Assembly (NCBI GenBank): GCA_016787295.1
Contig: JAEUUX010000249.1
Span: 1 to 40,550, forward strand
DNA: 40,550 bases
From: Chitinophagales bacterium
Lineage (GTDB): Bacteria > Bacteroidota > Bacteroidia > Chitinophagales > UBA2359
Direction of reading: 5' to 3'
Shown here: one piece after another, positions 1 to 8,137 of the stretch
Layout of the letters: each line of letters opens with the position of its first letter
How positions within the stretch are numbered: the first letter of the stretch is position 1
Translations under genes and position numbers: made by a program
Notes under the pieces: model-generated
Told to the model about the DNA's origin: nothing
The model's input: only the letters and a program-made list of their open reading frames with translations
Databases searched by the model: none

Positions 1-25
1 CAGGCTAAGAAATAAGGGCATAAAC

Positions 26-62
26 AAACCCATCGGATGTTATAGCGACATCCGATGGGTTT
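26..62. repeat. Intergenic hairpin (ACCC...GGGT family)
   Basis: A perfect 15-bp inverted repeat (arms 26-40 and 48-62) with a 7-nt loop. It begins AAACCC and ends GGGTTT, as do the hairpins at 97-129 and 13390-13428, so it is probably one member of a dispersed intergenic hairpin family. It could also serve as a terminator for a gene left of the window. The T-run after it on the plus strand is short. Confidence 0.6.
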
Positions 63-95
63 TGTTGTGTATGTATGGTGACATGATTGATTGAA

Positions 96-150
96 AAACC
101 CTTCGGAAGTTTTGAACCTCCGAAGGGTTAAATTTTAATATAGACAAGTG
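96..150. repeat. 55-bp direct repeat, left copy, with hairpin
   Basis: The segment is repeated at 495-549, and the two copies bracket the 21-bp tandem array. The first 33 bases fold into a hairpin with an 11-bp perfect stem (AACCCTTCGGA / TCCGAAGGGTT). The rest is an AT-rich tail ending TATAGACAAGTG that is the same in both copies. Confidence 0.8.
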
Positions 151-181
151 TATTTCGGCAAAAACCCAATGGATTTCGACA

Positions 182-491
182 ATTGTTCCCTTACAATGTG
201 TCATTGTTCCCTTACAATGCGTCATTGTTCCCTTACAATGTATCATTGTTCCCTTACAATGCGTCATTGTTCCCTTACAATGCGTCATTGTTCCCTTACA
301 ATGTATCATTGTCACCTTACAATGTATCATTGTTCCCTTACAATGCGTTATTGTTCCCTTACAATGCGTCATTGTTCCCTTACAATGTGTCATTGTTCCC
401 TTACAATGCGTCATTGTTGCCTTACAATGCGTCATTGTTCCCTTACAATGCGTCATTGTTCCCTTACAATGCGTAATTGTTCCCTTACAAT
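182..491. repeat. Tandem array, 15 units of 21 bp
   Basis: Units start at 182 and every 21 bp to 476. Each unit is ATTGT-N6-ACAAT plus a 5-bp linker. The two 5-bp arms are identical in all 15 units. Variation is confined to the 6-bp centre (mostly TCCCTT; CACCTT at unit 308 and TGCCTT at unit 413) and to the linker (GCGTC, GTGTC, GTATC, GCGTT, GCGTA). Because 21 is divisible by three and the unit has no stop, both strands stay open and give heptapeptide-repeat reading frames that are very unlikely to be genes. The period equals two helical turns, so all dyads face the same side of the DNA. A protein-binding array or a simple VNTR both fit. Confidence 0.95.
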
Positions 492-494
492 GCC

Positions 495-549
495 AAACCC
501 TTCGAAGGTTTCGAACCTCCGAAGGGTTAAATTTTAATATAGACAAGTG
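495..549. repeat. 55-bp direct repeat, right copy, with hairpin
   Basis: Second copy of the segment at 96-150. Its first half differs from the left copy by a few bases but still folds: a 9-bp outer stem (AACCCTTCG / CGAAGGGTT), one mismatch, and a 5-bp inner stem (AGGTT / AACCT). The tail is identical to that of the left copy. From 550 to 700 I see nothing but a weak CCCC-AACGG-AGTGAAG remnant near 596 that resembles short repeats at 20120-20200. Confidence 0.75.
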
Positions 550-701
550 GATTTAGACAAAAAGAAAATGATAACACAATAATTCAACACAAGACCCCAA
601 CGGAGTGAAGTTATTCAAAACGACACATCATAAAACCCTTTCAGGCTTATTTGATTTTTCATGTGTACCAATGACTTTTACACTCACCACCACCATATTA
701 C

Positions 702-749
702 AAAACGTGCGGGCATTGGAGTAAAACTTCTCCAATGCCCGCACGTTTT
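702..749. terminator. Bidirectional intrinsic terminator
   Basis: A 20-bp perfect inverted repeat (702-721 and 730-749) with an 8-nt loop, AAAA on the left and TTTT on the right. It lies about 115 nt past the stop of the minus-strand kinase gene, which it probably terminates. Confidence 0.85.
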
Positions 750-865
750 TGCAGCTTAAAAACCGATATGTAATTGTGGGTTTAGCGGCTGTCTTCCAAT
801 GTTTTTAGGACGGTTTGTCGATGGTATTCATTGGAATAACTATTGAACAAAGCCTCTATCAAATG

Positions 866-1507
866 TTAACGATGAAAATCGGAAAGTTCGGCAGCTACCA
901 ACTCGATAACCTTTTGTAAATCGGCGGGATTATCGGCATAGTTCAAATTGTCTATATCCAATATAAGCAATTTGCCAGCCTCGTAATTGTTAATCCAAGT
1001 TTCGTAGTAGTTATTTAGGTTTTCTAAGTAATCGGGACGAATATTGGACTCGAAGTTGCGTCCGCGTCGTCGGATTTGTTGCAACAAAGTAGGAATAGAA
1101 GCCCGCAAATAGATGAGCAAATCGGGCGGATCGAGCAACGAACTAATGCTTTTGAACAAAGTGGTATAGTTCTCAAAATCGCGCGGAGTCATCAAACCCA
1201 TTTCATACAAATTGGGGGCAAAAATGTTGGCATCTTCGTAGATAGTGCGGTCTTGGATAACAGTGCGGTCGCCTTGCTGAATCTGTTTCACTTGTGCAAA
1301 ACGGCTGTTCAAGAAATAGATTTGCAGGTTAAACGACCAACGTTTCATGTCTTCGTAAAAGTCGTCTAAATACGGATTGTGGTCTACATCTTCATAGAAA
1401 ATATGCCAACCAAAATGCTGACCCAATTGAGTGGTGAGGGTAGTTTTGCCTGCACCAATGTTGCCGGCAATGGCAATGTGGCGGAGTTGCTTTTTGTTTG
1501 TTTCCAC
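866..1507 (-). CDS. Deoxynucleoside kinase
   Basis: Phosphorylates deoxynucleosides (dAdo/dGuo-type salvage) with ATP in the cytosol. The 213-residue length is typical of the bacterial dNK family. Visible motifs are the P-loop GNIGAGKTT at residues 15-23, an E-D pair at 39-40, the DRT-x2-ED substrate motif at 86-92, and an arginine-rich LID (RRRGRNFE, 146-153). The start ATG directly precedes a short polar leader before the P-loop strand. The gene stands alone on the minus strand, 94 nt downstream of the PD-(D/E)XK gene and followed by a strong terminator. Substrate preference (dAdo, dGuo or dCyd) cannot be read from the sequence. Confidence 0.92.
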   Translation of the reverse strand: METNKKQLRHIAIAGNIGAGKTTLTTQLGQHFGWHIFYEDVDHNPYLDDFYEDMKRWSFNLQIYFLNSRFAQVKQIQQGDRTVIQDRTIYEDANIFAPNLYEMGLMTPRDFENYTTLFKSISSLLDPPDLLIYLRASIPTLLQQIRRRGRNFESNIRPDYLENLNNYYETWINNYEAGKLLILDIDNLNYADNPADLQKVIELVAAELSDFHR

Positions 1508-4404: not shown

Positions 4405-4435
4405 CCCCAAAAGAAGAAAAATTTAATTGAGCCTT

Positions 4436-6235
4436 ATGGAATTTATTTCAGAACAAAAGGTATTGAACGACCTTTTTGGCAACGACATCACCTATATCAT
4501 TCCACAATATCAACGTCCCTATTCGTGGGATTGTATTGGGAAAAGCGATAAAAACAACCAAATCAATGTCATTTGGCAAGATTTGATAGATTTTTATACA
4601 AGCAAAAATCCAAATATCTATTTTATGGGTGCTATGGTGATGATTGGCGATAGCAGTAACCGTATTTATGAAGTAATAGACGGACAACAACGCCTTACCA
4701 CTTTAACTTTGCTTTTTACGGCTATTAAATGCTTTTTGAAAGAAGTGTTGGAAAACAAACAATTGCCTCAAGAAGCACACCAAGAATTTACCACTTTTAT
4801 CAATGCTGCCTCCAATTATATCAACCAACTTGTTTTCAATGAAAAAAGAAACGGCTTGTATACTATTCCCGAAAAAAAGGTAAAAATCGAAAAAACAGTG
4901 GGATTTGATTACGATAGCGTACTAAAAACGGTATTGGAATGCGAAGATGCCTCACAAATTTCGCTGCAAAACACCAACGAAGAGCAAAAAGAAGTGACAG
5001 AACGCTACTTTAAAAACAGAAACTACTTTATCGAGCAACTGAAACAAACTTTTTTGGACAAAGGTGTTTTTACGAACGAAAAAGCTCAAGAGTTGGACAA
5101 ATTTTTCGAGTTTCTTAGAAATAAAGTAACAGTCATGCAAATTCGTGTACCGGGGTTTGAAGTTGCTTACCAAATTTTTGAGATTTTGAATAATCGTGGC
5201 TTGTCACTTTCCAACAAAGACTTGTTTCGGAATTTTTTAATTCGCAAATTTCATGAACTAAAATTGACAAATCCTTCTAAATACGCCGATTTGTTGCCCA
5301 CAGAAAAGTGGAGACATTTGGACGAAGCCTACGAATTTGATGCCGAATTTATTAGCCGTTATGTGGAAAGCAAAAACGGTAAAAACCAAAAGTATTCTGC
5401 CTATAACGACATCGAAGCTATCTACAACAAAAACTTTAAAGACTCTCCTACGCAAAGCAAAATAGAGGCTTTTTATGCCGACATTCAAAGCAATTTGGCT
5501 ATCTATACACAAATTATGGAGGCTGATTTTGCCAACAAACGCATGAAAAATACGGTCAGTTTTTTGCTCAAAGCAGGTAATTTGAGTTATACGCTCAACC
5601 TTTTATTGACGCTTTTTCGGCAAGAGAAAGACGAGGCGACAGCACTTCTTTTTTTGCAGACTTTTGAAAAATACATCTTGTATATGCTTTTGGGTAATGC
5701 CAAAAGGTTTAGCGCCAAACCCGTCTACCAAACCATTAATTTGCTGAATAAAGGTAAAACGGAATCTGCTCGGCAAGTGTTTGTATTGTCCGAAACAGAA
5801 ACAGAAGAGTTGTCAACATTGTTCAATGCTCCGATTAAAGACAACGATATTGCCAAAATTGTGTTGGCTCGCTATTATTATGCCATAGAAAACCAAAGCC
5901 AAGCGGACGTGGTGGAGCAACAGTTGGATTTTTCCAAAGCCACTTTGGAGCATATTATCCCACAATCACCCGAACCTGCTACCAATTGGCTGCGCGATTT
6001 TGGCGATGCTTTCCGCAAACAATATACTTATTTGTTGGGCAATATGACTTTGTTGACACACAAAATGAATGCAGCGAACAAAAACTATGATTTTGCAAAG
6101 AAAAAAACTATTTATGCACAAACCAAACTGCCGCTAACCAATGAACTTGCTCATTTGTCTCAAATTGATGAGAATTTCATCAAAGAAAGGCATCAAAAGA
6201 TAGTTGCAGGTATTTTGGGGGATTTGAAAGGATAG
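4436..6235 (+). CDS. DUF262/DUF1524 protein, GmrSD-like restriction factor
   Basis: A 599-residue protein with both halves of the GmrSD architecture. The N-terminal DUF262 (ParB/Srx-like NTPase) has IPQYQRPYSWD at 22-32 and DGQQRLTTL at 82-90. The C-terminal DUF1524 HNH nuclease has LEHIIPQ with its histidine near 506 and GNMTLL...N...FAKKK near 535-555. Characterised relatives are type IV restriction enzymes that cut modified (for example glucosyl-hydroxymethyl-cytosine) phage DNA. The ATG at 4436 is preferred to an in-frame TTG at 4427 because family members begin with a similar MxFIxEQxVL stretch. It stands alone, with no methylase or other defence gene beside it. Confidence 0.88.
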   Translation: MEFISEQKVLNDLFGNDITYIIPQYQRPYSWDCIGKSDKNNQINVIWQDLIDFYTSKNPNIYFMGAMVMIGDSSNRIYEVIDGQQRLTTLTLLFTAIKCFLKEVLENKQLPQEAHQEFTTFINAASNYINQLVFNEKRNGLYTIPEKKVKIEKTVGFDYDSVLKTVLECEDASQISLQNTNEEQKEVTERYFKNRNYFIEQLKQTFLDKGVFTNEKAQELDKFFEFLRNKVTVMQIRVPGFEVAYQIFEILNNRGLSLSNKDLFRNFLIRKFHELKLTNPSKYADLLPTEKWRHLDEAYEFDAEFISRYVESKNGKNQKYSAYNDIEAIYNKNFKDSPTQSKIEAFYADIQSNLAIYTQIMEADFANKRMKNTVSFLLKAGNLSYTLNLLLTLFRQEKDEATALLFLQTFEKYILYMLLGNAKRFSAKPVYQTINLLNKGKTESARQVFVLSETETEELSTLFNAPIKDNDIAKIVLARYYYAIENQSQADVVEQQLDFSKATLEHIIPQSPEPATNWLRDFGDAFRKQYTYLLGNMTLLTHKMNAANKNYDFAKKKTIYAQTKLPLTNELAHLSQIDENFIKERHQKIVAGILGDLKG

Positions 6236-7399: not shown

Positions 7400-8137
7400 T
7401 TATTCCGACACCAATGTACCAATATATTCGCCTTGTACGATGCGGCGCAAATTGCCTATTTTGTTCATGTCAAACACAATGATGGGAATATTGTTTTCTT
7501 TGCACAAAGTAAAAGCGGTCATGTCCATAACATTTAACTCCTTTTGAATGACCTCTGTGAAAGTAATTGTTTCGTATCGTTTAGCCGTAAGGTCTTTTTC
7601 GGGGTCGGCGGTATAAATGCCATCTACGCGCGTAGCTTTCAGAATAACGTCGGCATTGATTTCTACAGCTCGCAAAGCAGCAGCGGTATCGGTAGTAAAA
7701 TAGGGGTGTCCTGTGCCTGCACAAAAAATGACCACACGCCCTTTCTCTAAATGACGCACGGCACGACGCCGAATATATGACTCGGCAATTTTTTGCATTT
7801 CTATAGCAGATACCAAACGCGTATATAAACCCAATTTTTCTAAGGTATTTTGCAAGGCAACACCATTCATCACGGTGGCTAACATGCCCATATAGTCTCC
7901 CGAAGCACGGTCGATACCCAATTCGCCTGCGTCCATGCCACGAAAGATATTGCCGCCACCAATGACAATTGCCAACTCAACGCCATCGAGTTTGACAATG
8001 TCGCGAACTTGGAGGCAGTATTCCATGATGGTATCGGGAGAGATACCAAAATCTTGTTTTCCCATCAATGCCTCACCACTCAATTTGAGCAAAATGCGTT
8101 TGTATTTGGCAGTAGGAATGTTGTTTTCTATTTGCAT
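7400..8137 (-). CDS. pyrH: UMP kinase
   Basis: Converts UMP to UDP in pyrimidine nucleotide synthesis. It is a 245-residue bacterial-type hexameric UMP kinase of the amino-acid kinase fold. Signatures are [10 protein letters not shown] (17-26), IGGGNIFRG (59-67), and a C-terminal [12 protein letters not shown] segment typical of the family. It lies 106 nt downstream of tsf on the same strand, the usual tsf-pyrH order, but a terminator hairpin sits in the gap. The usual next gene, frr, does not follow. Confidence 0.97.

What the first reader, a model, noticed from the sequence alone, without database searches (positions are those of the whole stretch)
182..491. 15 phased dyads of exactly two helical turns
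All 15 units keep ATTGT and ACAAT unchanged while the centre and linker vary. The 21-bp period puts every dyad on the same DNA face. Invariant arms with drifting spacers argue for binding by a dimeric protein (operator array, partition or nucleoid site) rather than a neutral VNTR.
Basis: partly seen in the sequence, partly recalled or inferred. Interest (0 to 1): 0.58.

Follow-up and report, generated by a model that had tools for sequence, protein, structure and literature searches.

The report
One of many 21-bp intergenic minisatellites
A block of fifteen near-identical 21-letter DNA repeats turns out to be one of many such blocks between the genes of this bacterium; the blocks mostly differ in sequence, yet keep the same 21-letter period (two turns of the double helix), which points to a common way of making or keeping them rather than to one dedicated protein-binding site.

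Summary
The array is real: window 182-491, 15 units, every step 21 bp, arms ATTGT/ACAAT intact in all 15. The operator reading does not hold up well. Four other places in the genome carry the arms, but the sampled genome also holds 21-bp arrays with unrelated units: 9 of 17 arrays in an unselected sample have period 21 or 42. In a second Bacteroidota genome (G439) it is 57 of 61, mostly intergenic, in every gene orientation, with units no more alike than shuffles apart from a few pairs. Relatives show almost none. So the constant feature is mainly the period, not the arms. Dyad symmetry is enriched, array ends favour dyad edges, and inner bases covary to keep self-complementarity in other genomes though not in this one. 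I read it as local amplification of a short intergenic dyad in steps of two helical turns, like a VNTR. Why 21 bp is fixed is unexplained; my limited literature searches found no report of such a lock. New variant of a known kind.

The parts
182..491 (.). tandem array: 15 dyads ATTGT-N6-ACAAT (consensus unit ATTGTTCCCTTACAATGCGTC), period 21
97..129 (.). 33-nt REP-like hairpin left of the array, first part of a direct repeat (96-164)
   Evidence: 67-nt direct repeat at 91%; 46 matches of the 69-nt query in the genome, most over the hairpin part; DNA fold -12.2 kcal/mol
496..528 (.). second copy of the hairpin, right of the array (direct repeat 495-563)
27..61 (+). terminator-like hairpin behind the left gene
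   Evidence: read
1..15 (+). last codons of the left neighbour gene (QAKK stop); its frame continues in contig C151, whose end overlaps the window start
   Evidence: adjacency is inferred from the overlap
866..1507 (-). deoxynucleoside kinase gene (Pfam dNK), 3' end facing the array
   Evidence: E 2.8e-58

Best explanation
The array is one locus of an intergenic minisatellite class whose period is locked to 21 bp (two B-DNA turns), with 42 and 63 as multiples, while the unit sequence is mostly free. A short intergenic stretch, preferentially a dyad able to form a small hairpin, is duplicated head to tail and then extended and homogenised in place by slippage or unequal recombination; variants spread in blocks. 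The conserved arms are the self-complementary part of this locus's founder unit, kept by recent amplification and by a preference for whole dyads, not by a dedicated regulator. Shown: the array, the class, the lock, intergenic placement, lack of orientation preference, dyad enrichment, dyad-edge boundaries, sporadic occurrence among relatives. Inferred: slippage/recombination as the engine, the hairpin as the aid, and why only 21n is kept (either helical phasing or a duplicating activity that measures two turns).
For: Period: 57 of 61 arrays in the unselected G439 sample and 9 of 17 in the unselected own sample are 21 or 42; 0 arrays of period 20 or 22 in either genome; a TRF-free lag scan of G439 gives 44, 52, 36, 44 and 28 loci above a flat background of 1 at lags 21, 42, 63, 84 and 105, and at most 1 above it elsewhere. 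Sequence freedom: unit-to-unit similarity equals shuffles except for a few families. Place: intergenic for 57 of 65 (G439) and 14 of 15 (own selected set) arrays of period 21/41/42/63; gaps with arrays 9 of 19 convergent, 10 of 23 divergent, 18 of 56 tandem. Dyads: mean best arm 4.39 against 3.42 +/- 0.11, 0 of 500 shuffles; dyad-edge ends 36 of 65, p 5e-6; covariation. 42-bp units resemble themselves at lag 21 (0.37 against about 0.25). Genome-specific: 0 of 16, 0 of 19 and 0 of 19 orthologous loci in relatives carry a 21-bp array.
Against: Inside the window array no arm base varies (p 0.023), and over ATTGT arrays arms vary less than linkers (0.058 against 0.161 per cell, though my unit-calling rule favours intact arms). 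In the own genome, single ATTGT-N6-ACAAT sites outside arrays are also commoner than the reversed control (84 in all, of which 46 lie in the four arrays, against 7), which slippage alone does not explain. In the own genome the inner bases are not complementary (0 of 4 at positions 6/11), so the hairpin is short. Only about a third of 21-bp units have strong dyads, so hairpins cannot be required. Slippage alone does not predict a strict 21. The lock is weaker in the own genome (9 of 17) than in G439, and both samples contain many contig starts, where arrays are over-represented.
Confidence: 0.62

Rival explanations
1. Operator, partition or nucleoid array: a dimeric helix-turn-helix protein binds ATTGT-N6-ACAAT; half-sites alternate every 10-11 bp, so monomers line one face and can form a filament.
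For: Arms invariant in 15 units; at least four arrays plus an isolated unit in the genome share the arms with different centres; single sites are enriched over the control; array ends at dyad edges; scattered genomes of several phyla have arrays with the same arms.
Against: The genome holds 21-bp arrays with unrelated units; inner arm bases covary elsewhere; the locus is between convergent gene ends; no 21-bp array at 16 orthologous loci; Pfam finds no ParA/ParB or regulator among the five neighbours tested. The pattern required these arms and this period, so it cannot show that they are special.
Confidence: 0.15
2. A dedicated, sequence-blind duplicating activity with a 21-bp ruler (for example paired nicks two turns apart followed by fill-in) makes the arrays, and was gained or unleashed in single species.
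For: Strict 21n comb without 31/32 or 52/53; unrelated units; sporadic occurrence among close relatives; some arrays of fewer than three copies are already at 21 (6 of 16 own, 4 of 8 in G439).
Against: No enzyme identified; the Y1 transposase family, the one candidate tested, has 0 matches in the own genome; short-array numbers are small and relatives also show 2 of 8 at 21.
Confidence: 0.15
3. Neutral minisatellite whose 21-bp period is accidental or of coding origin (seven codons).
For: Some 21-bp arrays are coding (7 of 65 in G439); 21 is divisible by three.
Against: Most are intergenic; other multiples of three are almost absent in G439; no heptamer signal inside units (lag 7 identity 0.25).
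Confidence: 0.05

Closest known systems
Bacterial VNTRs / minisatellites
   Same: Head-to-tail intergenic units with point differences, in-array homogenisation, absence at orthologous places in relatives
   Different: The period is locked to 21n over many loci with mostly unrelated units; length polymorphism could not be tested
Borg tandem repeats (PMC9879509; abstract and 12 passages read)
   Same: Genome-specific outbreaks of many tandem arrays with unrelated units, in intergenic regions too
   Different: Borg units are perfect, A-rich, of several lengths (18, 20, 21, 36 nt mentioned in the passages), about half in ORFs; here the length is fixed, units are imperfect and mostly intergenic
TAACTGA heptamer direct repeats (PMC4679880; abstract, section list and the Bacteroidetes section read)
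   Same: Many intergenic direct-repeat sets in single genomes, scattered over Beggiatoaceae, cyanobacteria and Bacteroidetes, with relatives lacking them
   Different: There one fixed 7-mer sequence; here a fixed period with free sequence, no heptamer signal inside units
REP elements / REP-associated TnpA (general description recalled)
   Same: Palindromic extragenic repeats; a 33-nt hairpin family flanks this array
   Different: REPs are dispersed, not 21-bp tandem arrays; no Y1 transposase match in the own genome

Membership tests
Bacterial minisatellite / VNTR | head-to-tail units longer than 6-9 bp, at least three copies | tested here: met
Bacterial minisatellite / VNTR | copy number differs between strains | not testable with these tools
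   no second genome of the genus appears among the relatives given; same-family loci simply lack the array
Operator array | lies at a promoter of a regulated gene | tested here: not met
   between the 3' ends of two convergent genes
Operator array | sites in the genome share one recognised sequence | tested here: inconclusive
   arms shared by arrays on C78, C174, C69, C241 and a unit on C151, but other 21-bp arrays in the genome have unrelated units
Operator array | bound by a specific protein | not testable with these tools
   no binding data
Partition site (parS/parC type) | parA/parB-like genes nearby | tested here: inconclusive
   five neighbouring proteins scanned, none is ParA/ParB; the rest of the genome was not searched
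CRISPR array | constant repeats separated by unique spacers of similar length to the repeat | tested here: not met
   linkers are 5 bp and nearly constant
REP / Y1 transposase system | a Y1 transposase gene in the genome | tested here: not met
   PF01797: 0 matches in G000, matches in the other 11 of 12 genomes; the own genome is a draft
Heptamer direct repeats | 7-bp unit | tested here: not met
   lag-7 identity inside 21-bp units 0.25
Borg-type tandem repeats | perfect units without SNPs | tested here: not met
   93% matches, five variable columns

The most novel reading that the evidence does not exclude
Some bacterial species harbour an amplification activity that copies intergenic DNA head to tail in steps of exactly two helical turns (21 bp), nearly regardless of sequence, seeding many arrays per genome while sister species have none; the window array is one product.
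Probability: 0.2. Interest if true: 0.8.

Novelty: new variant of a known kind. Interest (0 to 1): 0.5.

Why it matters
How minisatellites are born and why units have the length they have is open. A natural set of dozens of arrays that share a period but mostly not a sequence separates period from sequence and makes two ideas testable: that helical phase decides which duplications persist, or that an enzyme measures two turns. It also warns against reading fixed arms in a single array as a regulator's operator: the control is the other arrays of the same genome.

Tried and rejected
Operator / partition reading: down-weighted for the reasons given. CRISPR: linkers too short and not unique. Coding heptads or heptamer ancestry: most arrays intergenic, no lag-7 signal. 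REP transposase as generator: none in the own genome. A one-sided conserved 'leader' beside arrays in planctomycete Gsp477_bin102: seen in that genome only, left as an observation. Shared arms across phyla as evidence for a common binder: dropped because the pattern itself demanded those arms and that period. Rfam on window 1-1500: nothing. Literature: searches (32 papers hold the terms, 20 listed; 6; 24, 20 listed; 0; 2; 4; 0; 2; 1,593, 8 listed; 1): the listed titles and abstract starts show no 21-bp-locked arrays; only open-licence PMC papers are held and I read only what is named under Closest known systems plus two passages of PMC9426551 (planctomycete deletions associated with intergenic tandem repeats).

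Limits. My own-genome set L115-L134 was partly chosen at hairpin and ATTGT hits, so rates are taken from L245-L264 and L138-L154. Both hold many contig starts, and arrays sit at contig ends (14 of 30 ends in G439 and 9 of 56 in own are in 21n arrays), so densities per Mb are inflated. The same-family comparison sample (259,519 bp) contains masked runs of N (seen as a flat background), so its true size is smaller. In one search units were accepted with at most three arm mismatches, which biases arm variability down. Copies of one array in one genome are not independent; the boundary test removes identical flanks only. One search also shows 21-bp arrays with other units inside the loci, but samples of seven of those genomes away from the seed arrays were mostly poor in them (Treponema and planctomycete 0 arrays; over all seven genomes 3 of 20 arrays at 21 or 42), so the lock is not general to every genome that has an ATTGT array.

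Full report
Observation. Window 182-491 is a tandem array of 15 dyads ATTGT-N6-ACAAT with every step 21 bp. No arm base varies; five columns vary, two in the centre and three in the linker. The dyad is rare for a 21-mer of this composition (181 of 20,000 shuffles). The array lies between two direct copies (67 nt, 91% identical) of a repeat that starts with a 33-nt hairpin, and between the 3' ends of two convergent genes: a gene ending at window 15, whose frame continues in contig C151 that overlaps the window start, and a deoxynucleoside kinase at 866-1507 on the minus strand.

Same arms elsewhere. The two-unit pattern occurs 41 times in the own genome against 0 for the reversed control, in arrays on C78 (window), C174 (22 exact units), C69 and C241, always at a 5-bp linker when 1-30 bp were allowed, apart from one 26-bp gap that is one imperfect unit. 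In 39 relatives of family and order there is none, and in 394 other genomes of the phylum two matches, one of them at period 21. A scan of public genomes gives 51 stretches in Bacteroidota, Planctomycetota, Treponema, cyanobacteria and others, but that pattern fixed arms and period, so it says nothing about how special they are.

The control that changed the reading. In stretches of the own genome and of G439 (the Bacteroidetes MAG that holds L012), TRF finds many arrays whose unit sequences have nothing to do with ATTGT but whose period is 21 or a multiple. In unselected samples, 57 of 61 arrays (G439) and 9 of 17 (own) have period 21 or 42. Arrays of six or more copies: 38 of 41 at 21 in G439, 17 of 23 in own; none at 20 or 22 in any copy-number class of the two genomes. 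A lag scan without TRF shows the comb 21, 42, 63, 84, 105 in G439 over a flat background of one. Same-family samples give 1 of 10 arrays at 21, and order-plus-phylum samples 1 of 5. Samples of seven other genomes that have ATTGT arrays gave only 3 of 20 arrays at 21 or 42, so the lock is a property of some genomes, not of all that carry the arms.

What the arrays share. They are mostly intergenic: 57 of 65 in G439 and 14 of 15 in the own selected set. They have no clear gene-orientation preference: gaps holding an array are 9 of 19 convergent, 10 of 23 divergent and 18 of 56 tandem in G439. Units are no more similar to each other than shuffled units, except for a few pairs and the ATTGT family. 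Dyad symmetry is enriched (mean best arm 4.39 against 3.42 +/- 0.11 in 51 units of G439; 4.23 against 3.34 +/- 0.22 in 13 own units; 0 of 500 shuffles each), yet only about a third of units have arms of five or more. 42-bp units resemble themselves at lag 21 (0.37), so they are probably diverged doubles.

What is special about the dyads. In ATTGT arrays the ends of the periodic stretch fall at a dyad edge in 36 of 65 cases, 18.6 expected (p 5e-6). The inner bases at positions 6 and 11 are complementary in 36 of 46 array consensuses outside the own genome (16.6 expected), and positions 7 and 10 in 26 of 46 (13.2 expected); in the own genome 0 of 4 at positions 6 and 11. Thus elsewhere self-complementarity is kept while sequence changes. 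Within arrays the differences per cell are arms 0.058, centre 0.091, linker 0.161, partly by construction of the unit rule.

Turnover. At the dNK locus, 16 same-family orthologues in other genomes have no 21-bp array nearby. G439 has an unrelated 21-bp array (AAGGAATTACATCATCCCCAA) about 80 bp behind its own dNK gene, followed by a second block of 21-bp units sharing the head but not the body. In 19 relatives of G439, the closest 94% identical in that protein, none has a 21-bp array there; at a second locus 0 of 19 loci from 18 genomes. The outbreak is thus species-specific at the loci examined.

Interpretation. The simplest account is local amplification of short intergenic dyads in steps of two helical turns, homogenised in place. 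This makes the window array one VNTR-type locus of a period-locked class. The lock itself is not explained by slippage. Two readings remain: selection for helical phase or a duplicating activity with a two-turn ruler; I cannot tell them apart, as the numbers of two-copy duplications are too small. A sequence-specific dimeric binder of ATTGT/ACAAT remains possible at about 0.15, helped by the arm invariance and by the excess of single sites in the own genome (84 in all, 46 of them in the four arrays, against 7 for the control).

Novelty. My ten paper searches (listed under Tried and rejected) returned no description of a 21-bp-locked, sequence-diverse array class; only open-licence PMC text was searched. 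Closest in print are Borg tandem repeats (PMC9879509) and TAACTGA heptamers (PMC4679880), both different in the ways listed.

Noticed in passing
window 97-129 and 496-528: A REP-like 33-nt palindrome (AACCCTTCGG...CCGAAGGGTT type); the 69-nt query containing it has 46 matches in the genome and contig C219 shows it at 42-bp steps.
   Followed up: partly
L115 (C151) 7600-7841: The contig end carries a hairpin, about one and a half units of the same array and then the start of the window sequence; either the true left neighbour with a truncated second array or an assembly junction.
   Followed up: partly
L014, L017, L022, L034, L039, L055, L059: In planctomycete Gsp477_bin102 a conserved stretch (about 100 bp) sits on one side of several dispersed arrays, and distal units look more degenerate than proximal ones.
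   Followed up: no
L138-L154 (G439): About 230 arrays per Mb, roughly 4% of the sampled DNA; half of the examined contig ends lie in arrays, so short-read assemblies of such genomes break there.
   Followed up: partly
L206-L208, L201-L205, L306: Heptamer (7-bp) arrays of many sequences in a Prevotellaceae MAG, Hormoscilla and a G439 relative.
   Followed up: no
window 4427-6235: GmrSD-type (type IV) restriction enzyme, N- and C-terminal domains both found.
   Followed up: no
L115 5795-7459: TIR domain joined to an FGE-sulfatase domain, next to the array-bearing end of C151.
   Followed up: no
G000: The own genome is the only one of 12 tested without a Y1 transposase (PF01797) match.
   Followed up: no
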